Below are positions 4,054 through 18,644 of a stretch of DNA of 49,755 nucleotides, one piece after another (the first letter of the stretch is position 1; each line of letters opens with the position of its first letter). This DNA is from Thermococcus sp. (GTDB lineage: Archaea > Methanobacteriota_B > Thermococci > Thermococcales > Thermococcaceae), in the NCBI RefSeq assembly GCF_027011145.1, contig NZ_JALVAO010000063.1, forward strand, positions 1 through 49,755, written 5' to 3'. The notes under the pieces were generated by a model. It saw only the letters and a list, made by a program, of their open reading frames with translations, was not told the origin of the DNA and searched no databases. The translations under genes and the position numbers were made by a program.

Positions 4054-4977
4054 ATGAACCGGTGGGAGCTCATAAGAGCTTTTCTGACGGGGCCATTAGT
4101 CGAGGCCACAGTTCCAAAGCCCGGGAACGTGAGCAGGAAGAGGGACTTTGAGGATTTGAGCATCTACAACTTCCTCGTTGCATATCCAGCTCTGGGGAGT
4201 ATCTACCACGAGACGGTGAAGAGGGCCGAGTCCATACGCTCCGGCCTTCTAAAGCCAAACGAGGCCGGAATTGGGGAGCTCATAAGGAGGGGAGTGGAGG
4301 CAACGAAAAGGGTTCAAGATGCAAATCCCAACTTTGGGGTTATCGTCCTCTCGATTCCCCTAATCATGGGCCTAACCCTGACGAAGAAGATTCCGGAAGG
4401 TGGGGAAAAAGCGAGATTGTTCATCGAGGAATCAACGGTAAGGGACACCATGGAGCTTTACAGGGCCATAAGAACGGCGAACCCAAAGGGCCTGCCCAGC
4501 GGAGTGAAGTACGACGTCTATTCTGACAAAGCCTTCGAAGAGCTCTTCAGGGACCAGATAAACCTCATGGAACTTGCGAAGATGAGCGCCGGGAGGGAGC
4601 TCGTCTTCGGTGAGTGGGCTAACGGTTACGAGCTCACGTACAGAACGTTTTGGAGAATGGCAGAGGAGCTCCCATCGCCTTTGGAAGAAGCAATCCCAAG
4701 TGTTTTCATAGAACTGCTCTCCGAGAATATCGATACGTTAATCCTCAGGAAGGCCGGAAGAGATGAGGCAGAGCTCGTCAGAGATAAAGCCCGGGAAGTT
4801 CGGGAAGAAAGGTTGAGTTTGAAAGCGTTTGAGGAGTTCATGGAGGAAAAGGGCGACCTCAGGAACCCGGGCAGTTTGGCGGACGTCATGGCGGTTTCGC
4901 TGAGCCTGCTGTTTCTGGCCGGAGTGAGAGTCGAAATGAGAAACGGGAAGGCCTGGCTGGTCACCTCACGACGGTGA
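4054..4977 (+). CDS. CitG/MdcB family protein (triphosphoribosyl-dephospho-CoA synthase-like)
   Basis: 307 residues, all-helical, with the CitG hallmark KPGNVSR near residue 22 and a conserved KYDVY segment near 150. CitG enzymes make the 2'-(5''-triphosphoribosyl)-3'-dephospho-CoA precursor of the citrate/malonate lyase prosthetic group. No lyase or carrier-protein gene is visible here, so the true substrate in this organism is uncertain. A TATA-like element (TTTTAAG) lies at about 4015-4021, and a GGTGG site just before the ATG fixes the start. The 3' end overlaps the convergent DUF1884 gene by 17 bases. Confidence 0.8.
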   Translation: MNRWELIRAFLTGPLVEATVPKPGNVSRKRDFEDLSIYNFLVAYPALGSIYHETVKRAESIRSGLLKPNEAGIGELIRRGVEATKRVQDANPNFGVIVLSIPLIMGLTLTKKIPEGGEKARLFIEESTVRDTMELYRAIRTANPKGLPSGVKYDVYSDKAFEELFRDQINLMELAKMSAGRELVFGEWANGYELTYRTFWRMAEELPSPLEEAIPSVFIELLSENIDTLILRKAGRDEAELVRDKAREVREERLSLKAFEEFMEEKGDLRNPGSLADVMAVSLSLLFLAGVRVEMRNGKAWLVTSRR

Positions 4978-5239
4978 AACGTTTTGCAGCTGGAGAGTAG
5001 CCGAAGGCTTTACTGTCGATGACGACAGCGTCCTTTCCGAGCTCGTCAACGACCCTCACAGGAAGTCCGGAGAGTTCGAGAACTTCCTCGTCGCCACCGA
5101 ATTCCTCGTTTACCTGGGCCTTTATGAACTCGTAGGCTTCCTTTCCAACGAGAACAACATCGGGGTTAAATCCTTCAAGCTTTAACTCGTTTGCTTTCTC
5201 CTCAATCAAGCTGAGAACTCGTATCAACTCTCCACGCAT
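4961..5239 (-). CDS. DUF1884 family protein
   Basis: 92 residues, soluble and acidic, with no signal peptide or membrane segment. The layout (N-terminal helix, then a strand with VVLVGKEAYEFI and a C-terminal VVIDSKAFGYSP stretch) matches my recollection of the Thermococcales DUF1884 family, whose function is unknown. The ATG at 5239 is preferred over one four codons upstream because TGGTG at 5246-5250 gives six-base spacing. It is convergent with, and overlaps, the CitG-like gene. There is no obvious operon partner except snatA upstream, about 50 bases away on the same strand. Confidence 0.75.
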   Translation of the reverse strand: MRGELIRVLSLIEEKANELKLEGFNPDVVLVGKEAYEFIKAQVNEEFGGDEEVLELSGLPVRVVDELGKDAVVIDSKAFGYSPAAKRFTVVR

Positions 5240-5288
5240 TTTCAACACCATTCCTGTTTGGAAATCGACGCTTTAAGGGTTTTGGAAA

Positions 5289-6056: not shown

Positions 6057-6332
6057 ATGGGGCATTCAATCCACTACAAAACCAATATCGCTAGATGGAA
6101 AGACTTTGAAAAGCTAGTGGAAAGGATAGCCTACGGCATAGGCTACGAGGTTGAAGTTGGGAAGAACTACCTCGTGCTCGACCCGGGCCATCCTCTAGTC
6201 GAACCCCTGATTATAGAGAAAAAAGGGATGGGCTTTGCCAAGACCAACCTGGTAGAGCCCCACCATTCCATATACCTGCTGGTTCTTCACTCGGTTGCGT
6301 TTTTCGGCTCCGTTGAGCTCTGGGAGGACTGA
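6057..6332 (+). CDS. Small conserved-looking hypothetical protein
   Basis: 91 residues; I do not recognise the family. It is soluble, with a predicted alpha/beta layout and several histidines (GHSIHY at the start, HPLVE and PHHSIYLLVLH later) that might bind metal, though this is only suggestive. A TATA-like element near 6016-6025 and GGTGAT at 6048-6053 support it as a real gene. Its last 46 bases overlap the 3' end of the convergent DUF2101-like gene. Nothing around it indicates a role. Confidence 0.7.
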   Translation: MGHSIHYKTNIARWKDFEKLVERIAYGIGYEVEVGKNYLVLDPGHPLVEPLIIEKKGMGFAKTNLVEPHHSIYLLVLHSVAFFGSVELWED

Positions 6333-7042
6333 GAGAGGTAAACTTCAATTATTCTAATAGGCTTTGCACTTCTAAAGTTCCTATTCTCCACAAGGACTTT
6401 AACTATCCTGCCCGGTTCGGCATCTGGAACCGCAGGTAGCCAATAGAAGCCGGGTTTGACGTTGGCTGAGATGTCGTCGTGAACGAAAACCCTAACTAGA
6501 TCCCCTTTAATTTCTTCAACAACTCCATAGGTAAATTCTCTACCGAATTTTCTTTTAAAATATATCCAGAAAACAACTACTAAAATAACAATAAGCCCTA
6601 AGAATGAATAGTAGGAGTACGGACTCACCCCAGCCTTTTTCAACACAACGTAACCAACGAATGAAAATGAAGAAATAAGAGAAACACCTGTGTAAAACAC
6701 TCTATATGGCTCGGGTTCAATGAGAAATCCAGAGTATCGTTTTAAGTAATATCTAAGATACAGGAGATAACAAATGGACAGTATCCCCACTAGTCCAACC
6801 TCTTGTGTAGATACTACCAAGATAAACGCCAAAAGTACATATAGTAGAAATGCTATCTGAAGATGAAGACTTACCAATTCATGAACTGTAAATCCTTTTT
6901 TCATGAATTTTGAAATAAATCTATGGACAGGAGGTTTTTCGGACGGCTTAGGATTAAAGAACAAAGTTATACCCCTAATAATCATTCGTGCTAAGTTCTC
7001 AATTTTTTCACCTATAGAATAAAGAAAATCTTCTAAACTCAT
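6287..7042 (-). CDS. DUF2101-like membrane protein, last gene of the prepilin cluster
   Basis: 251 residues. An N-terminal cytosolic stretch (1-55) is followed by about four hydrophobic helices (roughly 58-100 and 115-165). A small beta-rich C-terminal domain (about 170-235) contains VVEEIKGDLVRVFVHDD and a PGxYWLP segment, resembling an NfeD/OB-like module. I recall similar Thermococcales proteins under DUF2101; the function is unknown. It starts seven bases beyond the stop of the 7049-8173 gene with a GGGGTG site, so it belongs to the prepilin operon and may be a membrane partner of the surface structure. Its A+T content is high, like the cluster. Confidence 0.65.
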   Translation of the reverse strand: MSLEDFLYSIGEKIENLARMIIRGITLFFNPKPSEKPPVHRFISKFMKKGFTVHELVSLHLQIAFLLYVLLAFILVVSTQEVGLVGILSICYLLYLRYYLKRYSGFLIEPEPYRVFYTGVSLISSFSFVGYVVLKKAGVSPYSYYSFLGLIVILVVVFWIYFKRKFGREFTYGVVEEIKGDLVRVFVHDDISANVKPGFYWLPAVPDAEPGRIVKVLVENRNFRSAKPIRIIEVYLSQSSQSSTEPKNATE

Positions 7043-7048
7043 GCGTTT

Positions 7049-8173
7049 TCACCCCGTGGTATTAAAGACTAGTATTTTCGTAACATTATCTAAATGGAAT
7101 GCTGGGTATTCTTGAGTAACAGTTTCACCAGGTACACAGTAAGACCCACCCATTGCCACACAGTTGAGGAAATAGAAGGCAACGCTATCATAATCTGGAG
7201 GCAAGGATATATGAAGACTCGTAAGAGCGCCTACTAATGCAGGATCTGTTGACTCAGAGGGGACCAAGAAGGTTATAATACCAACAGGGAGTGAAGAGTT
7301 AATCCCAAGTTCACGCTGAACTCTGAACGCCATATCTGTGTAAGCTTGTTGTCTTGCAACGTATGTTGCATATGGGACTCTTTCAAACCGGTTCAAGATT
7401 GTAGGATAATACACTGTCTGAGCACCGTAGTGTCCAGTTGAATTAACGCCGAGGTAACACCACCCATAGACTAAATTTGTAACGTTATCTATGTCATAAT
7501 AACCATAGAGGTTTCCAGGATATGGAATCTCGCATGGGTTAATAACTCTTGTGTATATACCATTAAGAGATGCCGGAAGTAATGGATCTTCAAAACCAGT
7601 AATGCTAACAGTAGCATAGATAAAACCTCTAGAGGGAATGCTTCCAGAGAACATGACTCTCCCGGAAGAGTCCCTAATGGTTATGTTGTTTATCTTAGCT
7701 ATTGCAACAATATGAAATGAATCCAGCGGAGCAATTGTTAGATTAAGGTGTGATTTAAACGCGGAGAAATTTGAAGGACTTATAGTTAGGCCCAAAGAGG
7801 ATAAATAACTAACTAAATTGTTAAACCAAGCTTTGAGTGTTACGTTTTCCATTTCACTTTGGGGAATACCATTTAAAGTCCCGTCTAACATTAGAGTTTT
7901 CATTGCATATGAAGCGTTGGTTGATGTTAAAAATCCATTAGTGATTACATAGTCGGTCAAAGATAAATATGCCCTTTTTAGGCTTAAATCAAGGGCATTT
8001 TGAAAATCTTTCTTAACGGTAGATATCGCAAAAGTATCCCTAGAAAGGAGCAAATTCTGAGACTGTGCGTTCACTATACTGGAAGAAACTCCCTCATAAA
8101 CCGCAACGAGGAGTAACAAGGGAATGAGTATAACTATAACAGCAACATTAATCAGGAATCCATTTCTTTTCAT
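7049..8173 (-). CDS. Secreted/anchored surface protein of the prepilin cluster
   Basis: 374 residues with one N-terminal hydrophobic segment (about 8-27) behind a basic MKRNGF start, then a long extracellular domain rich in Asn-X-Ser/Thr sequons. It lacks the Q-x-S-[LI]-[DE] motif of its neighbours, so it is either a divergent prepilin or an N-terminally anchored protein. Four cysteines (two in CEIPYPG...WCYLG, two near the end) could form disulphides. It starts four bases after the stop of the 8177-10285 gene, with the ribosome binding site GGAGGGG inside that gene's end, which suggests translational coupling. Confidence 0.7.
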   Translation of the reverse strand: MKRNGFLINVAVIVILIPLLLLVAVYEGVSSSIVNAQSQNLLLSRDTFAISTVKKDFQNALDLSLKRAYLSLTDYVITNGFLTSTNASYAMKTLMLDGTLNGIPQSEMENVTLKAWFNNLVSYLSSLGLTISPSNFSAFKSHLNLTIAPLDSFHIVAIAKINNITIRDSSGRVMFSGSIPSRGFIYATVSITGFEDPLLPASLNGIYTRVINPCEIPYPGNLYGYYDIDNVTNLVYGWCYLGVNSTGHYGAQTVYYPTILNRFERVPYATYVARQQAYTDMAFRVQRELGINSSLPVGIITFLVPSESTDPALVGALTSLHISLPPDYDSVAFYFLNCVAMGGSYCVPGETVTQEYPAFHLDNVTKILVFNTTG

Positions 8174-8176
8174 AGC

Positions 8177-10285
8177 TCATCCCCTCCAAATCCGTAAAGT
8201 AACTTCGATGGGAGCAATTGAATTGGGAACGTTCCTAATACCAATAGCCTCAATCTGAAGCCCTTGTAAATTAACCATAATTGGATTAGCCCGCGTACCG
8301 GGAAGGTTCAAGGTATCGTTCTTAGCTCCCAACTGAACAAACAATCTAAAAATTGCATTGTCCAGCGCATATTTAAGGGGCTTAAGCTCAGATGCAGATA
8401 TTGAGAGTGGTGTCTCAGTTGGTTTACAGTTGCCTATAATGACAGTTCCGTTGTATATTGTTCCGGTAAAATTATAATAATAAGTCAGGTTATATCCACA
8501 AGAGTTGTTTTGGGAATAATAAGGGAATACATTACCGTATGGAGCATAGCCATTAAGGAAGTAATACACAATAGCCCTGCTGTCCTCATATCTAAACGTG
8601 TAATCGATATTATCACTAAGTATGCGGAATGTATTCGTTTCGCCTGGAACCATTATGGAGTTCAAAAGTTTTGTGTAGGCAATTCTAATAAGATACAAGT
8701 CTAGAGGTTCACTTAAGACCTTAACATTGGCCCCTGGCCCTTCATATAGAGTCAAAGTTCCACTGGGCCAACCTGTAAACTGAATAGCACTCCACACATC
8801 AACGTACCATGGGATAACGTTTTGAGGAAGATAATAGCTGAATGTCATGCCAGTTGGCAAGCCGTTCCATGAAGCAGTAACTCCGTCGGGTGAAAGTTGG
8901 TATATGTTCCCAAGGGGTATCATGAATTTTGTTACTGACACTCTTGGAATATAAGTGATATTGATATAGGAATTGGGATATCCATAGAGTATCCTTTCTT
9001 GAGTATATGAGAGATTGTAGTCTTGTCCCTCATATTCCATTTTTCCAGTATTAGAGTTGTAGTAAGCATCGAGAGCAATAACTAGGTTAAAATTCTTCTT
9101 ACTCAACTCACTTAATGTAGTGTATTTTTTTAGTGCACTCACGAGTGTTGAATTGGATACTATAACCTCAGACGTTGTGGAAGGGTTAACCCGAGCAGTG
9201 TACAGAAGGTTCAGAGATGTCCCATTAGAGTAGTATATCCTCACAGTAGTTACTCCAGAAACAGTTAATTTCATGCTTATCCCAGTAATGTTTCCAGGAA
9301 CAAAGAGGGAGTTCAAATAATACACTCCAGTATGAGCACTTTCAATGGTATATAACTTTACCAGTCCTGGATTTTGAATCGCGGGATATGCCGTTTTGTA
9401 TTTCATAAAAATCCAGCTTCCGCTTCCAAAGCCTATTTCGTCTGCCCACCAAGGAGGATTCGTGAAGTATGCACTGAAAACATTTGACCCGTTTTTGAGC
9501 TCGCCTGTTATGTTTAAAGATTGAACTCCCGTGCGGGTAACAAGTCTGTTATTAACATAGAAATACACATTTTCACCGGACCTAGTTGCAAGGTTTAAAG
9601 TTCCATTTGTTATGTTAGCATCATTAGGCAGAGAGACTGAAAATGTCACATTAAGATCATTTTCATACCATCTACCCCAACCACTATAGTAATAGGCTCC
9701 AGCCAAAACCCTCTGTATGCCAATGAGTTTTTCTTGAGATGTTATTAGCTTTGTAATATAAGCCTTTGCAACATATCCCCTAGGAAGGGCGTTTTGGGAA
9801 TATCCGCTAACCAAAATAGTTGCGGATCCTACATCTTGAGCTGTAGAGTAGTTATTTCCAAAAGTTAGATAAGGACTCGTATAGTTATTTATTATAAGCT
9901 GGTAGCTGTAACCTTTGATAAGAGACCTTAGGAGGTACTGGAGAATTATTTCAGAATAGTTCTTAAACTGAGAATAGTTGTTCGCCAACGCCCAATAAGT
10001 GGCAACTATCTGAAGAGGTGGCATTTGGGGATTTACATAGGTTAAATTCAATATCCCTGAAGAAATCCACTCATCTATGACCGTTGAAGGAACCAAGTTA
10101 CTTATCGGAACCGTTCTGAGAGTATCGAGAACATGTTGAGCTATCATTTTGTTTTGAAAATGTGATTGAGTTAGATATACTCGTCCCGTGTTCTCGGCTA
10201 CAGCACTTATACTCGCAATGAATATAAGGGCTAAGACGAGAGCTAAAACTGCATCAAGGGTAAAAATGAAAGCTTTTCTTCTCAT
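8177..10285 (-). CDS. Large prepilin-like surface protein
   Basis: 702 residues. The N-terminus is basic (MRRKAF), then IFTLDAVLALVLALIFI, a pilin-type helix with an acidic residue at the usual place but without the Gly-Gln cleavage pair. The rest is a beta-rich, Tyr/Asn/Ser/Thr-rich ectodomain with many N-glycosylation sequons. The ATG at 10285 follows GGGGTGG at the proper distance; a GTG three codons upstream overlaps that site and is less likely. It follows the 918-residue gene with one base between. Probably a minor pilin or adhesin; the function is inferred from context only. Confidence 0.75.
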   Translation of the reverse strand: MRRKAFIFTLDAVLALVLALIFIASISAVAENTGRVYLTQSHFQNKMIAQHVLDTLRTVPISNLVPSTVIDEWISSGILNLTYVNPQMPPLQIVATYWALANNYSQFKNYSEIILQYLLRSLIKGYSYQLIINNYTSPYLTFGNNYSTAQDVGSATILVSGYSQNALPRGYVAKAYITKLITSQEKLIGIQRVLAGAYYYSGWGRWYENDLNVTFSVSLPNDANITNGTLNLATRSGENVYFYVNNRLVTRTGVQSLNITGELKNGSNVFSAYFTNPPWWADEIGFGSGSWIFMKYKTAYPAIQNPGLVKLYTIESAHTGVYYLNSLFVPGNITGISMKLTVSGVTTVRIYYSNGTSLNLLYTARVNPSTTSEVIVSNSTLVSALKKYTTLSELSKKNFNLVIALDAYYNSNTGKMEYEGQDYNLSYTQERILYGYPNSYINITYIPRVSVTKFMIPLGNIYQLSPDGVTASWNGLPTGMTFSYYLPQNVIPWYVDVWSAIQFTGWPSGTLTLYEGPGANVKVLSEPLDLYLIRIAYTKLLNSIMVPGETNTFRILSDNIDYTFRYEDSRAIVYYFLNGYAPYGNVFPYYSQNNSCGYNLTYYYNFTGTIYNGTVIIGNCKPTETPLSISASELKPLKYALDNAIFRLFVQLGAKNDTLNLPGTRANPIMVNLQGLQIEAIGIRNVPNSIAPIEVTLRIWRG

Positions 10286-10286
10286 T

Positions 10287-13043
10287 TTAACCACCCCATA
10301 TTAATACTTTCATCAGGCCATAGCTGTATACCGGTCTCATGTAGAGATTCATATTTGCAATGTCTTGCAAATCTACCCAGGGATACCCTGCTATAGAATA
10401 CGCCCATATGGTAAACGTCACGCCACCATTGAGAGTTTCAAAGGGTACTAAACACTTCCATGGAACGAGCAATACTGTCCCAGACACTTTTACATTACAT
10501 GAAGCAACTTCAGAGCTGGCGAAACCATAAACAACAGTATTATTTATAGAGGCCACCGCCAGGATTGAATATCCAGAGTAGTCTTCCCCAACATAAGTAG
10601 ATACCAACGTGAAGTTACCGGTCGTTGAGTTTGGCACTTCTATCTTTAAGTACCCTATTGGAGCGAACTGGAGCATGCCTCCATATAAGGCCTTAGGAAG
10701 AGATGTTCCAGTAAGATTGTACTCTTTAGAATACAAGAGCATTCTAACCGCAATAATCCTGCTTGCCTGTTCAACCCAACTTGATGACTTCATCGACTTA
10801 ACTGCCAGAGTGTTGTTAACAAGACTACCATTAATCATTGAAATCTGGAAATAGGAAGAACTGAGCTGAGAGAGACTTGGGTAAACATAGCTGACGTTTA
10901 ATGATGTGACGTTCAGTGAGAGAGTGGAAGTCGTTTGAGGTACGGTACAAATTGCTAACTCAAAAGGAGGCAATGGGGGAAGGGAATATATCCAGGTTGA
11001 AGATGAAATGTTGGAATAAGGTGGAACCTGCGGAAGAGTCTGATTTGGAGTTACGAGAGATACCCCATTTGGATCTATTAGCACATCTGCCGTTAGGGAT
11101 GTGGAAGAATATGAAACTAGTTTTAAAGGAGCTTCATATACGCTAGCTTGAAATCTTCTAACATAATAGTAGTCAACATATACATACCAATTCTTGTCCC
11201 AATTGGTAAGACTTGCATCTGATGAAGTCCAACCACTATTTCCTTGTTGGATATATCCAGTCATATCATAGTCAGAATCAGAATACAAATATCCCTCTAA
11301 AGCATACCAGTTATTATCATAGAAGTAAAGATATCCTCCATGTATTGTTAAACTCTTTCCTCTAGGACCAAGCACAACCCCATAATAATAATCCTCAAGT
11401 ATCCAGAGATATGAATCATAGTAGCCATTCTTATAGTAAACGAACACACTACCGTCGTTTATAGTTATTGTGCCGTTAGCATAGACCTGATAACCTATGT
11501 ATGCATTTTTGCCGACAGTCAACGAAACACCAGAGGACGTTAAGTTGAGATACTGATCAACAACGAGCTTATCCCCAACTGAAACAGGCACAGTTGAATA
11601 TTTTCCGGTCGTAAGGTTTCCTCCAACATAGAGACTTCCTCCGATTTCAACTCCATATCCGGCCAAAACTGTAAAATTGTCAAATACCACGGTAGTGTTA
11701 CCAGTTTTGAGGGTATAGTAAGATGATGAGCCTTGAATAACAACGCTCCCATTTACGACTAAGTTTTCCCTGGCCGAAACCACTCCAGTATAACCAAGTA
11801 TTTCCAAGCTTCCATTTACGTATATGTTTCTTCCAACAATAGTTCCATAAACAGTAGCGTTTCCATTTATATAGACGTCTCCAGAGGCATTTATAACTCC
11901 ATCATACCCCAAATAGAGAGGACCGTTTATGTAAACAGAGCCATTGCTCAAAATCTCTGAACTACTCAGGGATGCGTTACCAACTATGTAGACTGAACCA
12001 TTAGAAGATAAAGTAGCAGTTCCTCTAGCTAAGAGATTGCCACCAATGTAAGTTGAACCTCCAACCGCTAAATAAGCCCCATTTGCTAGTGTTAGGTTTG
12101 AGTACTCGTAGTATGAACCTCCAATAGTTGCAACTCCATAACTGGCTATGGTAGTGTTCTTTAATATGTAAACAGAGCCAGTAGCATTGAGAAGACCTCT
12201 GTTTCCAATATAAGCAGAGCCGTAAACGTAGAGCGTCCCAACATCAGCGACGTTTCCACTACCCGCTATATAGAGACTTCCATTGATATAAGCAACGTTT
12301 GAAGCACTCAGAGTACCACTATTGGCCACAGAGAGGTTCCCATTCACATAGAGAGAAGATGTATTTACCGAACCATCGGAGCCAACACTTAAAGAGCCGT
12401 TTACACTGAATGTTTGACCGACATACAAGTTAAAGTTGTTTCCAACAAAGGCTGAGTTCAAGATGCAGACACTGTAGGGATTACCATAATAATTATAGCT
12501 AATCCCTGAATGAGAGAAGTAAAATATGCCCGTTGGACAGTATATCACAATTGAAGTATCATTAGGCAATACACCGGCTTGTCTAAGACTACATATCTCA
12601 AGAACTGAAGGCACAGAAGGAAGTATTGATGAGACACTAAACGAGTAGTTTGCAGAGATTGAAGAGTTCACAAAATAAAAGGTAAGCCTGAAGTTATTGT
12701 GACCAGACAGGTTCCAGAGAGCATTCAAGAGAGCGGAGTTACCTGAGCGAACACCATCAAATAGGGTTGTAATTTTGTTGTAATCAACATACTGTCCATT
12801 GATTGACCTTAATCCCGGAACCCTAACAACACTTAAGTTCCCTGTCCAATTTGATGGTTCCCCTGGTGTGTTGATAAGAATGTCCAGCATGTTATCTGCC
12901 AGATTCGTTCTTTCATACCAGCTCAACATTGAAGAAAGTCCATTCCCTATGTTTTGAGATGCAGACGTAACAGCGGAAAGGATGAAAATCACTACAACAA
13001 GTGCGACCAGAGCATCTAAACTTAACAGCTGACCCTTTCTCAC
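10287..13043 (-). CDS. Giant class III prepilin-like protein with beta-solenoid repeats
   Basis: 918 residues from a GTG start behind a GGTGGTG site. The N-terminus MRKGQLLSLDALVALVV resembles class III signal peptides: cleavage would fall between Gly4 and Gln5, followed by the pilin helix. After a globular region (about 40-195) come many short imperfect repeats with the pattern Gly-Ser-x-Tyr-Ile-x-Gly-Asn (about 200-530), like a right-handed beta-helix or bactofilin-type solenoid. A Tyr-rich insert (about 535-640) and a C-terminal domain with Cys pairs follow. The stop codon of the preceding gene overlaps the start by four bases. Likely a surface adhesin displayed on or with a type IV-like pilus (inference). 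Confidence 0.8.
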   Translation of the reverse strand: MRKGQLLSLDALVALVVVIFILSAVTSASQNIGNGLSSMLSWYERTNLADNMLDILINTPGEPSNWTGNLSVVRVPGLRSINGQYVDYNKITTLFDGVRSGNSALLNALWNLSGHNNFRLTFYFVNSSISANYSFSVSSILPSVPSVLEICSLRQAGVLPNDTSIVIYCPTGIFYFSHSGISYNYYGNPYSVCILNSAFVGNNFNLYVGQTFSVNGSLSVGSDGSVNTSSLYVNGNLSVANSGTLSASNVAYINGSLYIAGSGNVADVGTLYVYGSAYIGNRGLLNATGSVYILKNTTIASYGVATIGGSYYEYSNLTLANGAYLAVGGSTYIGGNLLARGTATLSSNGSVYIVGNASLSSSEILSNGSVYINGPLYLGYDGVINASGDVYINGNATVYGTIVGRNIYVNGSLEILGYTGVVSARENLVVNGSVVIQGSSSYYTLKTGNTTVVFDNFTVLAGYGVEIGGSLYVGGNLTTGKYSTVPVSVGDKLVVDQYLNLTSSGVSLTVGKNAYIGYQVYANGTITINDGSVFVYYKNGYYDSYLWILEDYYYGVVLGPRGKSLTIHGGYLYFYDNNWYALEGYLYSDSDYDMTGYIQQGNSGWTSSDASLTNWDKNWYVYVDYYYVRRFQASVYEAPLKLVSYSSTSLTADVLIDPNGVSLVTPNQTLPQVPPYSNISSSTWIYSLPPLPPFELAICTVPQTTSTLSLNVTSLNVSYVYPSLSQLSSSYFQISMINGSLVNNTLAVKSMKSSSWVEQASRIIAVRMLLYSKEYNLTGTSLPKALYGGMLQFAPIGYLKIEVPNSTTGNFTLVSTYVGEDYSGYSILAVASINNTVVYGFASSEVASCNVKVSGTVLLVPWKCLVPFETLNGGVTFTIWAYSIAGYPWVDLQDIANMNLYMRPVYSYGLMKVLIWGG
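11456..12446 (-). repeat. Imperfect coding repeats for a beta-solenoid
   Basis: Within the 918-residue gene, codons for about residues 200-530 encode roughly 15 degenerate units of about 20-24 residues. Each is centred on a Val/Leu-Tyr-Ile/Val-x-Gly strand preceded by a Gly/Asn-rich turn (for example GSVYIVGN, GDVYINGN, GSLYVGGN). The repeats are recognisable in protein but diverged in DNA, so they are not a recent expansion. Such regular short strands are typical of stacked beta-helix coils. Confidence 0.65.
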
Positions 13044-13516
13044 TTCACCACCACCCCGACTTGGATTACATAACTCCTAAAGGACAACACACTTCCATTA
13101 TAAGCAAACCCCTTCATTGAAGAGAGACTCCTTACAATGTACTTCTCAAGCGCATTACTTAGGATTGTAGAATTAACCGAGTTAACACAGTTTATGTAAA
13201 CTGTTGTATTGATGAGGTTTCCGTTTTGAGTTAATCCGACTCCCTCGACGTTGCACTGTAGTGAGCTGTAGTTGTAGAGACTGACCACAGTATTAAGGGG
13301 AGAGTATTTTGAAGCATTCACAACAACACCAGAGTTTAAATACAAGCATCCACTCATCGCAGTTGTTTTAACATAATAAACTATTTGATTCTTTGTATCG
13401 GATTGATAATAAGCTCCGCTAACTATCACAATACCCACTAGTATTATAGCTAGGATAAACATCAGCTCTATTGATACTTGGCCTCTACTTTTGAAGGACA
13501 ACCGATATCCCCCCAT
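13040..13516 (-). CDS. Class III signal peptide (prepilin) protein
   Basis: 158 residues. The class III motif is unmistakable: SRG then QVSIELMFILAIILVG, with prepilin peptidase cleavage expected after the Gly, then a hydrophobic helix that packs the pilus core. The short ectodomain has five Asn sequons and three Cys. As drawn, the start overlaps the upstream gene by 32 bases and has no good ribosome binding site. A TTG at 13501, just after a GGGGGG stretch, would give MSFKSRG and may be the true start. The 3' end overlaps the next gene by four bases. Confidence 0.8.
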   Translation of the reverse strand: MGGYRLSFKSRGQVSIELMFILAIILVGIVIVSGAYYQSDTKNQIVYYVKTTAMSGCLYLNSGVVVNASKYSPLNTVVSLYNYSSLQCNVEGVGLTQNGNLINTTVYINCVNSVNSTILSNALEKYIVRSLSSMKGFAYNGSVLSFRSYVIQVGVVVK

Positions 13517-13922
13517 CTGGAGAGGTCATGGAAGTTATTTCAAATGTATCATTACCAGGAGTCAAAAGGACACTAGATTGTGAAAGCACGGGAACCTGAA
13601 GTCTTTGGATGACAAGATAGTGTTTTCCATTGAGTTGGGCATTTACAACCACGGTTTGATTTGTCGTTAGGGTAATGTTTATCCAGTCCCCAGGATACAG
13701 CTGAAACGGTGGCTTTTTTTGAAGTGTTATACCCGGTCCAGAGGCATAAACTTTTGCAACCGAGTCTCGGATATCTATTACAAATACCTTTAACTCCATC
13801 CCCTTTCCCAAGGTTTGCATTTCCTCAGTTTGGGAGGTCCCACTAACGATTAACCCAAGGACTGTTAAGGACACAAGGACAAGGGCAAACAATAAATCAA
13901 GGCTTATCTGGCCCTTTTTCAT
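13485..13922 (-). CDS. Class III signal peptide (prepilin) protein
   Basis: 145 residues. The N-terminus MKKG followed by QISLDLLFALVLV is a textbook archaeal class III signal peptide with cleavage after Gly4. The mature protein would be a pilin of about 140 residues with a small beta-rich domain (PPFQLYPGDWINITL near the middle). It starts immediately next to the stop of the 13923-14540 gene and overlaps the following prepilin gene. Role: structural or minor pilin exported by an archaeal type IV-like machine that is not encoded in this window. Confidence 0.82.
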   Translation of the reverse strand: MKKGQISLDLLFALVLVSLTVLGLIVSGTSQTEEMQTLGKGMELKVFVIDIRDSVAKVYASGPGITLQKKPPFQLYPGDWINITLTTNQTVVVNAQLNGKHYLVIQRLQVPVLSQSSVLLTPGNDTFEITSMTSPDGGISVVLQK

Positions 13923-14540
13923 TTACGAACCACCCGGATGAATGTTTATGTAAACCTCTTGGGAAGTTGAGTTATAGGTAATTCCTACGGGCAAATCTGG
14001 GTTCCATTCAACAACTACTTTAAGGGATGAGGGAAGCAGGGTAGGAGCGATGGTTACATTGAACCCTGGGTCTACTGTAGAGTTATAGGGGAAATAAGTT
14101 GGCACCCATACTCCCGTGCGGTTACTTCCAACTAACAGAGGGGCCGAGCCATTGTTAAATACGGCAACTGCAACAACTGAATTTGTAGCGTTTGGGGGGA
14201 ACAATGGGTGAGAACTACCAAGGAACATTATACTTACGACAGGATTGGAGAGGTTAAACGCCCTCTTTAAATACCCTTCATTACGAAGGAGAGCAAACTT
14301 AACATAAGCTGTGGCCTTTGATCCAGGTCCTTGAGCATAAACTTGGTCAATTAGTCCTGCTATGGTATTAGCAGTACTCTTTTCTTCAAGAGCTATTTGA
14401 ACTGCCAGGGCACCGTTGGAAGGAGAGTCCGAACTAAACGTAACGTTTCTAACTGAGTAGAGTAGCATAATTAACATTATCGCAAACACTAGCATGAATT
14501 CGAGCGAAATTTGACCCCGCCTTTTCAGGACTAACCCCAT
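13923..14540 (-). CDS. Class III signal peptide (prepilin) protein, first of the set
   Basis: 205 residues. KRRG then QISLEFMLVFAIMLI is a class III signal peptide with expected cleavage after Gly9. The mature domain includes an FNVTIAPTLLPSSLKVVVEW segment typical of an immunoglobulin-like beta sandwich and several Asn sequons. The start follows GGAGGGTGAG with correct spacing, and a promoter-like element lies in the 44-base gap upstream, so this gene probably begins a transcription unit that continues through five more surface proteins. Base composition changes here to markedly AT-rich compared with the upstream genes. Confidence 0.83.
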   Translation of the reverse strand: MGLVLKRRGQISLEFMLVFAIMLIMLLYSVRNVTFSSDSPSNGALAVQIALEEKSTANTIAGLIDQVYAQGPGSKATAYVKFALLRNEGYLKRAFNLSNPVVSIMFLGSSHPLFPPNATNSVVAVAVFNNGSAPLLVGSNRTGVWVPTYFPYNSTVDPGFNVTIAPTLLPSSLKVVVEWNPDLPVGITYNSTSQEVYINIHPGGS

Positions 14541-14584
14541 TACTCACCCTCCAATATAAAGATATAAGGAACAATATTTAACGA
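14541..14584 (-). promoter_or_regulatory. Likely internal promoter of the prepilin genes
   Basis: The 44-base gap between the two-helix membrane protein and the first prepilin is the only sizeable break in the cluster. Read on the minus strand it carries an AT-rich TATA-like element (GTTAAATATT, about 14573-14582), about 40 bases before the ATG, and a GGAGGGTGAG ribosome binding site. This suggests the pilin set can be expressed separately from cetZ. Confidence 0.5.
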
Positions 14585-15202
14585 TTACTCCTCAGATTTA
14601 CCTTCAACAACCGCAAAAATGCCGGATGGCGTTTTCTTGGTTCTAATACCGAAGTAACCCTCGGTAAAGAGTTTAAATTTATATTTGTCCGCGGAGAGAC
14701 GGTGCTTAGTTAGAATAACCCCCAACTCATCGATAAAGAACTGGGTGAGCTCGTAGTAAATCAAGTCAAGTGAACTTCTGACCCTGTCCCGAACCGCGAA
14801 CGCGAGGGGAAGGAGTGAGAGGCCGAGAAGCACGAGGGGCGAACCCGTAAGAGCTGTCAGTGCACCGGTCAAAACGATGACCCCTGCAAGAATGACGTAT
14901 GCAACCTTCTCCATCCTCTTAAGCCTCTTTCCCAGCTTAACTTTCTCCTCCCAGATGTCAAGCAACGCCGGATTGTAGAAGTCGAAGGCCGTATGTCTCT
15001 TCCCTTTGGCAATTCTCTCCCTTATCAGGGCATCCCAGTCGTCGGTGTAGTAAATAACCTCCCCGCGGAGCTTTGCCCTTTCCGCATCTAGGGAGGAGAT
15101 AATCCTGATTAGGTCCTCCGCGCTCTCATGGGCTATGTGGGAGTAAACCGATTTCTCATCGAGTTCGAGGGCCACTTCAACGGAGTCCCTGATTTCACTC
15201 AT
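14585..15202 (-). CDS. Two-helix membrane protein coupled to CetZ
   Basis: 205 residues; family not recognised. A charged N-terminal cytosolic part (1-98, probably coiled-coil around 80-98) leads to a hydrophobic hairpin (about 99-119 and 121-138). A C-terminal cytosolic domain of about 65 residues follows, ending FGIRTKKTPSGIFAVVEG. Both large parts would face the cytosol. The start overlaps the end of cetZ by eight bases, so translation is coupled and the product may anchor or regulate the tubulin at the membrane (inference). GC content is normal for the chromosome, unlike the prepilins downstream. Confidence 0.7.
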   Translation of the reverse strand: MSEIRDSVEVALELDEKSVYSHIAHESAEDLIRIISSLDAERAKLRGEVIYYTDDWDALIRERIAKGKRHTAFDFYNPALLDIWEEKVKLGKRLKRMEKVAYVILAGVIVLTGALTALTGSPLVLLGLSLLPLAFAVRDRVRSSLDLIYYELTQFFIDELGVILTKHRLSADKYKFKLFTEGYFGIRTKKTPSGIFAVVEGKSEE

Positions 15203-16355
15203 TCTTTTTCCTCCTGAGCCCCTTTATGAGACCACCTATATCCGGAAGCTCCCCGGAGGATTCATCGGGGATAACTGTGGGGTAGACATCATCAAAGTCT
15301 GGCAGACCGTTGAGGAGTTCACTCTTCTTTGTTTCGGCTTCCCTCTTAGCTTCCATGAAGGAGCGGGCGTATTCCTTGGCAGTCTTCACTATCTCCACTA
15401 TGCTCCGGCTCTCGTAGATTCCGCTGAGGAGCGTTACGACCTCAACCTCCCTCTCGCGCGGGTCCGGGTAGAAGCCACGGAAAATCTGCTTGCCCCGGAT
15501 TTTGCTCGTAAGGTAGTCCAGAGCTTCGAAGATGTCATTCGCCTTGAGAACCTCCGGCGGTCCGTGTATAGCGACGAGCCCGTAGAGAGCCGATTCTATG
15601 TTGGCGTCTAGGTAAAGGCCCTCGCTCTCGAAGGAGCGTATGATTAACCTCGACAGGCTCTTAACCTTGCTCGCATCGGCCTTCGCGTAGCCCACAGTGG
15701 CGAAGCTCCCGAAGGCCTTGAGGACGAACTTTAAGTCGCTGGCATCCAATGTCTGCTCACCCGGGACATCTACCAGAGCAAGCAGGGACGCTATCCTCTC
15801 CACTATGGTGTAATTAATCCTCTCGTAGGCCCGGCTTATGTCATCGTTGCCTTCCTTGAGCTTGTTGTTGTCTATCGCGATAATCGAGTCCGCTATCTTG
15901 GAGAGCTTGTCTATGGTTATGGCCGCGTTTATGGTCGGCCTTATGCCCTCCTCCTTCAAAGGCAGGGCCCCTATGGCGACCACCAGGGAGTCCGGGTACT
16001 CCTCCTTGAGTGCCTCAGCCAGGACGGGCGTTCCACCGGCACCGGTTCCGCCACCGAAGCCGAAGGTAAGGAAAAAGATGTCAACGTCCTCGTAGCCGAC
16101 TATGGAGTTTATTTTTCTCATCACCAGGGGCAAATCACGCTTCATGGCCTCCCTGCCAAGTATCGGGTTGGCATTGACGCCCTTTCCCCCAGTGAGAGCC
16201 TCTCCAATGAGGATTCTCCTGTCCTGAGGAACGTGCTTCAGGTAGTCTAGGTCGCCCCTTGAGGTGTTTATTGCAAGGGTCTCGAAATCAACCAGCGCGA
16301 ACAGGTCGGCTATCTTCGTCCCGCACTGGCCAATTCCTATTATCAGGGCCCTCAA
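15195..16355 (-). CDS. cetZ: CetZ-type tubulin/FtsZ superfamily GTPase
   Basis: 386 residues. The nucleotide-binding G-box at residues 7-12 (GIGQCG) and the tubulin signature GGGTGAG at 101-107 place it in the tubulin/FtsZ family. The short N-terminus and GGGTGAGGTP context fit the archaeal CetZ (FtsZ3) group rather than cell-division FtsZ. In Haloferax, CetZ proteins control cell shape and motility; the Thermococcales role is not established. The tail (about 335-386) is charged and may be flexible. The start is a TTG placed seven bases after an AGGTGA site. It sits between a secreted cyclase-fold protein and a membrane protein leading into the prepilin genes, suggesting a link to the cell surface. 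Confidence 0.88.
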   Translation of the reverse strand: MRALIIGIGQCGTKIADLFALVDFETLAINTSRGDLDYLKHVPQDRRILIGEALTGGKGVNANPILGREAMKRDLPLVMRKINSIVGYEDVDIFFLTFGFGGGTGAGGTPVLAEALKEEYPDSLVVAIGALPLKEEGIRPTINAAITIDKLSKIADSIIAIDNNKLKEGNDDISRAYERINYTIVERIASLLALVDVPGEQTLDASDLKFVLKAFGSFATVGYAKADASKVKSLSRLIIRSFESEGLYLDANIESALYGLVAIHGPPEVLKANDIFEALDYLTSKIRGKQIFRGFYPDPREREVEVVTLLSGIYESRSIVEIVKTAKEYARSFMEAKREAETKKSELLNGLPDFDDVYPTVIPDESSGELPDIGGLIKGLRRKKNE

Positions 16356-16361
16356 GGGCTT

Positions 16362-18587
16362 TCACCTCACCACTATCTGCCTGAACATGCCGTCTTCGTA
16401 CGTTAGTATCATTGCGTCTCCCCTTATGTAGCGTATGAATCCCGTGGTGAATAGCTCAACGGCCATCCACCGGCTTGAGTTGGAGTAGAACACGAAGAGG
16501 ACCCTTCCCTTGGAGGTGTAGCCCGGTATTAGGACCACGGAAGAATCCATGGGCACGGTGTAGTTGGCAACGATCACGGTGCCGTTTCCAAGGTCGAACG
16601 CCAGGTACGGGTTGTAAGCCGAAACGTCGTAGCTACCGTAGGGGGCTATTACTATGTAGTATCCTTTACCGATTCCAGTCATGTTGCTAAGGTTGAATGA
16701 ATCGCCATAGAGCCTTACAAGTGAATCGTAGACCTTCTGGGTATCGTTTGAGGGGAGGCCAATTGTTATTACGTTGAAGAGCTCTGAGCCAAGAGCGAGC
16801 CTAATTTCATCGAGGGTAACCTTTGGAACGAACTTGTAACGGGAAAGGTACATCACCGCGAAGGCCGTCTCGACGGTTTTACCATTGATTTCCCCACTTT
16901 CCTTGGCCTTTATCACGAAGTTAAGGGTGTCCCTGCTGAAATTGTAGCCGAAGTTTGCGAGAACGTCGGTGGCGCGGACGGTTAATTCAACAGTCGGCTT
17001 CATCTCTACAACACGACCGCTAACCGGGTCATAGTAGGGCTTCCAGTAGGCCCAGCCACCATCAAAACGCTGTGAAACGAGCCACTCGGCGTGAGGTTTG
17101 AGCTTCTCCTTGGGAACAACCCCGATAAACGCCTCTAGTATTGAGACCGTTGTTAGAACATCTGGCCGAAGCATGTAAGAGAAATACGGTGTTGAGACGT
17201 ATATTCCCCATCCCCCGTTGGAGGTGCTGAGAACCCAATTGATTGCCCTCTGGATTAGGGAATCGTTCGCCGGAACACCAAGGTCGAGAAGCGCCCTAAC
17301 GGCGAGGGCCGTTTCGTAGGGCTGGGGACCGAGGTTGTTGCCCCAGAGTCCGATTCCATAGGGGAGCTGAGAGGCGATTATATCCCTGATTGCTTCGTCT
17401 TTCTCCTCCTTTGAAAGGGCATTGAAGTGGATGAGCGTCTCGAGGGCGTAGAAGTAGGCCGGAGAAAACCTGTGGGTGCTTACCATCTTCTGGGCATCCA
17501 CCTTAAGTGCTTCCTTCGACCACTCAAGGGCCTTTTCAATGGACTCGTTTGAAGGAACACAGTATTTGAGGGCCAGAAGGGCGTAGTAGGTGGCCTTCTC
17601 ATTGGAGGGTCCCAACTCAACGAGAGGCCATCCCCCATCCTTGTTCTGGAGGGCCTTTAACTCCGAGCAGGGTGCCGCGTAGGGGTTCCTCTCAACGGGA
17701 ATCTCGGGAGTGTACTGCTCAAGATACGAAACCGCCAGAAGGGCGTAGGCAGATGTCTTAATAACTTCAGGGGTTGTTAAGGGATAGCTGGGGGCCGAAA
17801 GCCAGTATGAGTAGTTTCCAGAGACCCTTGCCAGTTCGAGGAGCTTGCTAACGAAATAGGAGGTTGTAAAGTCCAGAGGCCTCACAAGTTCAAGGGCGTA
17901 GGTGAGCATTGCCCTGTCAAGTACAGTTACATTCGTACCCTTCAGAACGTTTTCAATCTCAGAAACGAGCTCCTCCGGAACAGGGTAGCCAACGGAGTGG
18001 AGGGCTATCACTTTAAGGGCAAGGGTCTGTTCCTGCGGGAGTGTGGAAGGCGCTGACAAAAGAAAATTTACGGCTTCCTTTACAGGACTTTCCGTGTAGT
18101 AATAGCCATACTCCCCGAGGGCCCAGACGGCCATGGCCGTTGGATAAAACTCTGGCTTTGTTTGCGGAACGTAACCCCACCCGCTACCTGAGCTGGAATC
18201 CACCAGATAGGAAACCGCCTTGGATATTCCACCCGAAACAAGACCGGAATGAATCGGTGAAACGTAAGGCTTTGCCATGATTAAAGCTATGAGGGCATAG
18301 GAGGTATCCACAACGTTGCTCGTCTCGTTGGGGAGGTAACCCCATCCACCGTCAGGATTTTGAAGGGAAAGCAACTTCATAGCAAGGGAGTCAATTTCAC
18401 CGGAGCTGGCGTTACCAACGGCCTTCTGGGAACCCGAGAGAGCCATCAGAACGAGGCTCATGTCCCTAATGCTCTGAACGTTTGATGACGCATCGGAGAG
18501 AAATGCAACACCGCCATTTATCACTCCCGCGGAAGCAGTAGGAAGGACTATGAGCATAAGGATTAAAACTAAGGCTGTCCTCTTCAT
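16362..18587 (-). CDS. Secreted prenyltransferase/squalene-cyclase-fold repeat protein
   Basis: 741 residues with a clear signal peptide (MKRTALVLILMLIVLPTASA). At least five repeats carry a Gly-x-Gly/Gly-Gly-Trp motif (DGGWGY, GSGWGY, DGGWPL, NGGWGI, DGGWAY) between paired helices. This is the alpha/alpha-barrel repeat shared by squalene-hopene cyclases, protein prenyltransferases and complement-like thioester proteins. The DxDD-type cyclase acid motif is not visible, so a catalytic terpene role is unlikely outside the cell; binding or scaffolding is more plausible. The ATG at 18587 follows GGGGTG; a longer upstream reading lacks this support. It ends six bases before cetZ and likely heads that transcription unit. 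Confidence 0.78.
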   Translation of the reverse strand: MKRTALVLILMLIVLPTASAGVINGGVAFLSDASSNVQSIRDMSLVLMALSGSQKAVGNASSGEIDSLAMKLLSLQNPDGGWGYLPNETSNVVDTSYALIALIMAKPYVSPIHSGLVSGGISKAVSYLVDSSSGSGWGYVPQTKPEFYPTAMAVWALGEYGYYYTESPVKEAVNFLLSAPSTLPQEQTLALKVIALHSVGYPVPEELVSEIENVLKGTNVTVLDRAMLTYALELVRPLDFTTSYFVSKLLELARVSGNYSYWLSAPSYPLTTPEVIKTSAYALLAVSYLEQYTPEIPVERNPYAAPCSELKALQNKDGGWPLVELGPSNEKATYYALLALKYCVPSNESIEKALEWSKEALKVDAQKMVSTHRFSPAYFYALETLIHFNALSKEEKDEAIRDIIASQLPYGIGLWGNNLGPQPYETALAVRALLDLGVPANDSLIQRAINWVLSTSNGGWGIYVSTPYFSYMLRPDVLTTVSILEAFIGVVPKEKLKPHAEWLVSQRFDGGWAYWKPYYDPVSGRVVEMKPTVELTVRATDVLANFGYNFSRDTLNFVIKAKESGEINGKTVETAFAVMYLSRYKFVPKVTLDEIRLALGSELFNVITIGLPSNDTQKVYDSLVRLYGDSFNLSNMTGIGKGYYIVIAPYGSYDVSAYNPYLAFDLGNGTVIVANYTVPMDSSVVLIPGYTSKGRVLFVFYSNSSRWMAVELFTTGFIRYIRGDAMILTYEDGMFRQIVVR

Positions 18588-18644
18588 GCAATCACACCCC
18601 AACCAAAAATGGAGAAAGAAATAAATAAAGTTTTTCACGCCAAA

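What the first reader, a model, noticed from the sequence alone, without database searches (positions are those of the whole stretch)
6287..18587. Prepilin-CetZ-cyclase-fold surface cluster
Ten consecutive leftward genes join a secreted alpha/alpha-barrel repeat protein, a CetZ tubulin, a two-helix membrane protein, three clear class III prepilins, two very large prepilin-like proteins (918 and 702 residues), an anchored glycoprotein and a polytopic membrane protein. Gene overlaps of 4-32 bases show tight coupling. No pilus ATPase or TadC-like platform is present, so export must use a shared machine. I know of no described system that links a CetZ cytoskeletal protein with a dedicated pilin set and a cyclase-fold exoprotein.
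Basis: partly seen in the sequence, partly recalled or inferred. Interest (0 to 1): 0.78.

Follow-up and report, generated by a model that had tools for sequence, protein, structure and literature searches.

The report
Tubulin-linked minor pilin gene cluster
These ten neighbouring genes are the Thermococcales version of an already published locus that keeps a tubulin-like cytoskeleton gene (CetZ) beside a set of type IV minor pilins; the comparison adds that a nearly constant inner part (CetZ plus a membrane protein found only in this order) sits next to an outer pilin part that is repeatedly swapped between species.

Summary
Ten minus-strand genes (6287-18587) encode a secreted alpha/alpha-barrel protein, CetZ, a two-helix membrane protein (g8), three canonical prepilins, two large prepilins, a pilin-like protein (g2) and a DUF2101 membrane protein. 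The order is identical in 71 of 71 Thermococcales loci. The claim that no such system has been described is wrong: Makarova et al. 2016 (citing Szabo 2007) and Brown & Duggin 2023 report this CetZ/pilin linkage across Thermococcales, Makarova also the squalene-cyclase-like gene. The 'shared machine' inference is supported: the only non-archaellum ATPase/TadC locus lies on another contig.

New here: (1) a conserved internal TATA box (67/71) splits the cluster into barrel-CetZ-g8 and a pilin operon; (2) CetZ carries an invariant C-terminal peptide (LLsGLPDFDDxYp) and, species phylogeny removed, co-varies only with g8, while g8 also co-varies with pilins and barrel; (3) g2 has the signature of a tip-initiating minor pilin and switches type with g3 (at least nine changes); (4) the 918-aa prepilin carries a predicted beta-solenoid.

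Most likely, CetZ polymer attached to the membrane through g8 organises the base of a clade-1 type IV pilus with interchangeable tips. This coupling is inferred, not shown.

The parts
16362..18587 (-). g10: secreted alpha/alpha-toroid (squalene-cyclase-fold) protein, 741 aa; not a cyclase by motif
   Evidence: Pfam SQHop_cyclase_C/N, TED, Prenyltrans; PDB sequence hits to SHC and SQHop_cyclase_C proteins; DxDD in only 3 of 69 orthologues, GCGEQ in none
18620..18629 (-). presumptive TATA box (TTTATTTATT) of unit A, 33-42 nt before the barrel ATG
   Evidence: box type present upstream of g10 in 44 of 69 loci, background about 1.5%
15195..16355 (-). g9: CetZ tubulin-family GTPase, 386 aa
   Evidence: Tubulin 106 bits and CetZ_C 60 bits, both over cut-off; best PDB relatives 4b46, 3zid, 4b45; orthologue in 89 of 94 genomes
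15279..15320 (-). invariant C-terminal peptide of CetZ (residues 346-359, ELLNGLPDFDDVYP), followed by a variable tail
   Evidence: core GLPDF in 68 of 68 orthologues examined; region after it has mean majority frequency 0.23
14585..15202 (-). g8: two-helix membrane protein, candidate CetZ membrane adaptor; conserved cytoplasmic N-domain (residues 1-95)
   Evidence: found only in Thermococcales at usable scores, next to cetZ in every assembled case; N-domain conservation 0.85 vs 0.47 for TM region; AlphaFold pLDDT 82.6, no PDB match
14575..14581 (-). presumptive internal TATA box (TTAAATA) of unit B, 41 nt before g7 start
   Evidence: TTAAATA at this junction in 67 of 71 loci, at the other internal junctions 0-2
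13923..14540 (-). g7: class III prepilin, 205 aa (KRRG|QISLE)
   Evidence: Pfam Class_IIIsignal over cut-off; E at +5 in 71/71
13485..13922 (-). g6: class III prepilin, 145 aa (KKG|QISLD)
   Evidence: D at +5 in 65/65 with a recognisable site
13040..13516 (-). g5: class III prepilin, 158 aa (SRG|QVSIE)
   Evidence: Class_IIIsignal 22.9 bits, cut-off 23.7; E at +5 in 69/69
10287..13043 (-). g4: large prepilin-like protein, 918 aa, longest of 71 orthologues (331-918)
   Evidence: class III-like site with D at +6 in 69 of 70
11436..12470 (-). beta-solenoid insert of g4 (residues about 192-536), bactofilin-like, about 20-residue coils
   Evidence: AlphaFold pLDDT mostly above 90 over 200-400; Pfam Bactofilin 3.8e-6 just below cut-off, over cut-off in orthologue L053
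8177..10285 (-). g3: large prepilin-like protein, 702 aa (RRKA|FIFTLD)
   Evidence: D at +6 in 67/71; sequence type co-switches with g2
7049..8173 (-). g2: pilin-like anchored protein, short (374 aa) type without DUF2341; candidate tip pilin
   Evidence: pilin-like N-terminus lacking acidic +5/+6 in 71/71; last pilin gene; long orthologues tested carry DUF2341
6287..7042 (-). g1: DUF2101 polytopic membrane protein, 251 aa
   Evidence: Pfam DUF2101 6e-72

Best explanation
This is the minor-pilin locus of the Thermococcales clade-1 type IV pilus, organised as two transcription units. [quoted passage not shown] Unit B (g7-g1) supplies the minor pilins: g5-g7 prime the filament, g3 and g2 form the tip, g2 being the tip-most subunit and in many species carrying a PilY1-type DUF2341 adhesin domain; g4 is a variable decorated minor pilin, here with a beta-solenoid. 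The secreted barrel protein is likely a structural or binding partner at the outside of the base (it co-varies with g5). Filament extension is done by the unlinked machine (DUF515, ATPase, two TadC-like proteins on contig C16) with unlinked short major pilins (contig C50). Shown: gene content, order, conservation, two promoter-like boxes, co-variation, tip-pilin signature, repeated exchange of g2+g3. Inferred: CetZ polymerisation, CetZ-g8 contact, g8-pilus contact, tip position, adhesive role.
For: Identical order in 71/71 loci; CetZ and g8 orthologues both in 89 of 94 genomes and missing in the same five assemblies, both without a usable match in 21 other genomes of the class (two weak C-terminal g8 hits, E about 1e-4). 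CetZ_C domain, CetZ structures as best PDB hits, Gly-rich and T7-type loops kept. Invariant CetZ tail peptide. Partial co-variation controlling for an rpoB+rpoA1 tree: CetZ-g8 0.48 and CetZ with all others 0.13 or less; g8-g10 0.47, g8-g6 0.41, g8-g5 0.40; g10-g5 0.56 although not adjacent; g3-g2 0.62; adjacent pairs g10-g9 0.13, g8-g7 0.17, g4-g3 0.22. Acidic +5/+6 in g3-g7, none in g2; the same traits (large, no Glu5, 3' end of cluster) are proposed as marks of filament-initiating pilins in PMC5207764. g2-short and g3-long types coincide in exactly 11 loci, 9 parsimony changes. Machine and major pilins elsewhere.
Against: The internal TATA box allows unit A and unit B to be expressed apart. 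CetZ itself shows almost no co-variation with any pilin, and between sister species unit B can be replaced while unit A stays 94-99% identical, so CetZ need not touch the pilins. Joint transfer of neighbouring genes can also create co-variation, and slow CetZ evolution limits power; outside the window's genus (25 loci) CetZ-g8 drops to 0.33 and g8-g7 rises to 0.77. Methanococci have a clade-1 pilus (PMC4858521), and the control genome M. jannaschii has no CetZ_C match, so CetZ is not needed for such pili in general. g8 has no structural relative that would reveal a function.
Confidence: 0.5

Rival explanations
1. Passive neighbours: CetZ-g8 is a cell-shape or envelope unit of its own (as CetZ1 in Haloferax) that happens to sit upstream of the pilin operon; no physical coupling to pili.
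For: Own promoter-like box for each unit; CetZ does not co-vary with any pilin; unit B replaced independently of unit A in sister species; cetZ of Archaeoglobales, Methanomicrobiales and Methanosarcinales is not pilin-linked (PMC9856176).
Against: Linkage never broken in 89 genomes; g8 co-varies with g5, g6 and the barrel; a second CetZ-pilus linkage (CetZ2 with pilB2/C2) exists in Halobacteria (PMC9856176, PMC4858521).
Confidence: 0.27
2. The filament is a short pseudopilus-like device for DNA uptake or protein export, not an adhesive pilus; CetZ-g8 place the uptake site.
For: M. maripaludis type IV-like pilus genes are needed for natural transformation (PMC10133366); T. kodakarensis is naturally competent (PMC7137780); minor pilins are unusually many and large.
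Against: DUF2341 (PilY1-type) domains in long g2 orthologues and repeated exchange of g2+g3 fit a surface-recognition tip better; short stand-alone major pilins exist.
Confidence: 0.15
3. The prepilins and the barrel build a cell-envelope-attached binding complex (bindosome-like) rather than a filament.
For: Large heads, secreted barrel, no major pilin in the cluster.
Against: Acidic +5 residues conserved in g5-g7 are typical of pilins that enter a filament; separate short major pilins and one clade-1 type machine in the genome.
Confidence: 0.08

Closest known systems
Clade-1 archaeal type IV pilus loci with FtsZ-family arCOG02202 and squalene cyclase arCOG03396 in Thermococci (Makarova et al. 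2016, PMC4858521, citing Szabo et al. 2007)
   Same: Same CetZ-family and cyclase-fold genes with several prepilins in Thermococci; at least five minor pilins, adhesin-like large proteins; ATPase, two TadC-like proteins, short stand-alone major pilins in the genome.
   Different: In this window the adhesin gene is the short type without DUF2341, the 918-aa prepilin has a beta-solenoid, and ATPase/TadC lie on another contig.
Thermococcales cetZ/pilin synteny (Brown & Duggin 2023, PMC9856176)
   Same: All analysed Thermococcales cetZ regions carry the pilin arCOGs with conserved organisation; CetZ proposed as pilus scaffold.
   Different: Not found in the passages read: the internal promoter-like box, CetZ-g8 co-variation, the invariant CetZ tail peptide, the tip-pilin signature and the g2+g3 type exchange.
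CetZ2 next to the pilB2/C2 regulon in Halobacteria
   Same: CetZ-family gene beside a type IV pilus gene set.
   Different: That regulon includes its own ATPase and PilC; whether a g8-like protein is present was not tested.
GspK/PilX-type tip minor pilins with PilY1 (bacterial T2SS and T4P)
   Same: Large, lacks Glu5, last gene of the pilin cluster, DUF2341 domain in long orthologues.
   Different: Analogy in traits only; no homology tested, archaeal class III signal, single membrane.

Membership tests
CetZ (tubulin superfamily) | Tubulin GTPase domain plus CetZ_C domain over curated cut-off | tested here: met
   106.4 and 60.1 bits, cut-offs 33 and 21.6
CetZ (tubulin superfamily) | Closest solved structures are CetZ proteins | tested here: met
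   4b46, 3zid, 4b45 are the top three hits; that these are CetZ entries is from my own knowledge
CetZ (tubulin superfamily) | GTP-dependent polymerisation | not testable with these tools
   GGGTGAGG and DASD loops invariant or nearly so, compatible only
Clade-1 archaeal type IV pilus | Set of at least five class III minor pilins | tested here: met
   g3-g7 with acidic +5/+6
Clade-1 archaeal type IV pilus | DUF2341 adhesin in the locus | tested here: not met
   Absent in the window's short g2; present in all four long g2 orthologues scanned
Clade-1 archaeal type IV pilus | Secretion ATPase with two TadC-like proteins | tested here: met
   On contig C16, not in the window: T2SSE 688 aa, T2SSF 350 and 306 aa beside DUF515; clade placement by tree not done
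Clade-1 archaeal type IV pilus | Short (about 70 aa) stand-alone major pilins | tested here: met
   57 and 63 aa class III ORFs on contig C50
Clade-1 archaeal type IV pilus | Dedicated prepilin peptidase EppA | tested here: inconclusive
   one hit on C68, 23.9 bits against cut-off 29.9
Squalene/terpene cyclase | Toroid repeats of the cyclase fold | tested here: met
   Pfam and PDB sequence hits
Squalene/terpene cyclase | Catalytic DxDD motif | tested here: not met
   DxDD in 3 of 69 orthologues
GspK-type tip minor pilin (works like) | Largest or large, no acidic residue at 5, at 3' end of pilin genes | tested here: met
   0 of 71 with acidic +5/+6, last pilin gene in 71 of 71; up to 1217 aa, though only 359-377 aa in the short type seen in the window
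GspK-type tip minor pilin (works like) | Located at filament tip | not testable with these tools
   needs imaging or crosslinking
Bactofilin | Bactofilin domain over cut-off | tested here: not met
   27.5 bits against 27.9 in the window's g4, 31.5 in one orthologue; beta-solenoid fold predicted

The most novel reading that the evidence does not exclude
Thermococcales possess a dedicated tubulin-based scaffold for type IV pili: CetZ polymer, tied to the membrane by an order-specific helical-hairpin adaptor (g8) that reads the invariant CetZ tail peptide, forms a nearly constant inner core on which a recombining, interchangeable set of minor pilins and tips is mounted.
Probability: 0.3. Interest if true: 0.75.

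Novelty: new member of a known kind. Interest (0 to 1): 0.45.

Why it matters
The role of CetZ outside haloarchaea is unknown. This locus gives a tractable test case in organisms that are naturally competent and genetically accessible: one CetZ per genome, one candidate membrane partner, one pilus type. The constant-core/variable-surface split, with a tip pair that is exchanged as a unit, also points to a surface under diversifying selection (viruses, substrates or kin recognition).

Tried and rejected
DUF2101 in the literature library: no paper. Squalene-cyclase enzyme activity: rejected, DxDD missing. Alpha-2-macroglobulin-type thioester domain: rejected, no GCGEQ motif in 69 orthologues. 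g8 as SepF-like or other known anchor: no structural match. g4 model against PDB: no significant whole-protein match, so the solenoid rests on the model's confidence and the Pfam hit. g8 beyond Thermococcales: only two weak C-terminal hits (E about 1e-4, G096 and G113), not followed as homologues. T. kodakarensis and T. onnurineus primary-transcriptome papers searched for these genes: not named in the main text, supplements not available. Mirror-tree with only TYW1 as control was replaced by an rpoB+rpoA1 tree. CetZ-g8 complex prediction not possible with the monomer tool.
Full report
Check of the observation. The ten minus-strand ORFs are present at the stated coordinates. Pfam assigns Tubulin and CetZ_C to g9, DUF2101 to g1, class III signal to g7 (g5 just below cut-off), toroid repeats of the squalene-cyclase/prenyltransferase type to g10, and a sub-threshold Bactofilin match to g4. 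The genome holds three tubulin-family genes; the other two are FtsZ-like by their distance from this CetZ. The barrel start at 18587 is preferred because the ORF extension to 18638 contains the promoter-like box.

Already described. Makarova et al. [quoted passage not shown] 2007. Brown & Duggin 2023 (PMC9856176) found all analysed Thermococcales cetZ regions pilin-associated with conserved organisation, and proposed CetZ as a pilus scaffold.

Conservation. An orthologue of this CetZ occurs in 89 of 94 Thermococcales genomes at about 80-97% identity; g8 is missing in the same five assemblies only and is adjacent to cetZ wherever assembled. The barrel gene is adjacent in all complete cases except two related species, where it is cleanly gone and the TYW1 gene precedes cetZ directly. 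In 71 loci read in full, all genes found have the same order and strand. Outside the order but inside the class, 21 genomes have no CetZ_C match, and g8 has at most two weak C-terminal hits there.

Two transcription units. TTAAATA occurs at the g8/g7 junction in 67 of 71 loci, against 0 to 2 at the other eight internal junctions and 1.5% in random 90-nt stretches; it lies mostly 27-47 nt before the g7 start. A TTTATTTAT/TTTATATA box precedes g10 in 44 of 69. T. onnurineus TSS mapping places TATA boxes at -30 to -20 (PMC5316973). This is a motif inference; no transcript data were read.

Co-variation. Distances of each protein were compared after removing rpoB+rpoA1 tree and protein distance (68 loci). 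CetZ co-varies with g8 (0.48) and with nothing else (0.13 or less). g8 also co-varies with g10 (0.47), g6 (0.41) and g5 (0.40). g7-g6-g5 form a block (0.44-0.66), g10 pairs with the non-adjacent g5 (0.56), g5 with g1 (0.57), g3 with g2 (0.62), while adjacent pairs g10-g9, g8-g7 and g4-g3 are low (0.13, 0.17, 0.22). Values are stable on subsampling and dereplication; outside the window's genus (25 loci) CetZ-g8 falls to 0.33 and g8-pilin values rise. Shared transfer of neighbouring genes is an alternative cause. An earlier run with only TYW1 as control gave the same blocks.

CetZ tail and g8. All 68 aligned CetZ proteins keep the motif LLxGLPDF(D/E)DxY after the CetZ_C domain, followed by a tail with almost no conservation. 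The cytoplasmic N-domain of g8 is strongly conserved (mean 0.85, motif KGKRHTAFDFYNP) and its membrane segment is not (0.47). AlphaFold gives a long helical hairpin with mean pLDDT 82.6 and no PDB match better than E 0.5. I infer, but did not show, that the CetZ tail binds g8.

Tip pair. Class III-like anchors with an acidic residue at +5 or +6 occur in g7 (71/71), g6 (65/65), g5 (69/69), g4 (69/70) and g3 (67/71); g2 has the anchor but never the acidic residue (0/71). A single large pilin without Glu5 at the 3' end of the cluster is proposed as the mark of the filament-initiating subunit (PMC5207764). Long g2 orthologues scanned carry DUF2341, the domain Makarova et al. compare with PilY1. 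The g2 length classes are 359-377, 463-485, 720-862 and 1067-1217 aa. Short g2 and one g3 sequence type coincide in exactly 11 of 71 loci, the window included, with nine parsimony changes on the species tree (shuffled mean 10.4), i.e. scattered. A second type (L053, L071, L085, L100) also coincides exactly between g2 and g3, with four changes.

Constant core, variable surface. In sister species, unit A can be 97-99% identical while g6-g1 fall to 32-66% (L096/L064; g7 still 90%), and the barrel can be replaced on its own (L049/L051, 37%). The window's g4 is the longest of 71; AlphaFold predicts a beta-solenoid of about 20-residue coils at residues 192-536, mostly pLDDT above 90 between 200 and 400. 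g4 proteins of 690 aa or more occur in five loci with five parsimony changes; the three scanned have Bactofilin matches.

Machine. T2SSE genes are on C16, C68 and two weaker places, T2SSF on C16 (two) and C68; none on this contig. C16 reads DUF515, a secreted protein, a 688-aa ATPase, two T2SSF proteins. Short class III pilins of 57 and 63 aa are on C50. I take C68 as the archaellum locus from general knowledge; a weak prepilin-peptidase hit is on the same contig.

Verdict. A real and well-conserved locus, already published as a linkage. The added results refine it into a testable model, in which the coupling of CetZ to the pilus through g8 is inference.

Noticed in passing
window 4961-5251 (-): Small protein matching Pfam ENCP4, 'putative type 4B encapsulin shell protein' (105 bits), two genes downstream of the cluster next to a MarC family gene; found at the same end of the locus in only four of the first 35 relatives.
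   Followed up: partly
window 6057-6332 (+): A 91-aa ORF converges on and overlaps the 3' end of the DUF2101 gene by 46 nt; no Pfam match.
   Followed up: partly
L066 and L067 (G020, G072): Clean loss of the barrel gene; a TATA-like box (AAAACTTTATGTATT) now precedes cetZ directly.
   Followed up: partly
L092 (G023): g2 (720 aa) and g3 (811 aa) are singletons of their own types, a possible further co-switched tip type.
   Followed up: no
L076 to L078 and L106 to L110 (one genus): The barrel protein forms a separate, strongly diverged group in this genus.
   Followed up: no
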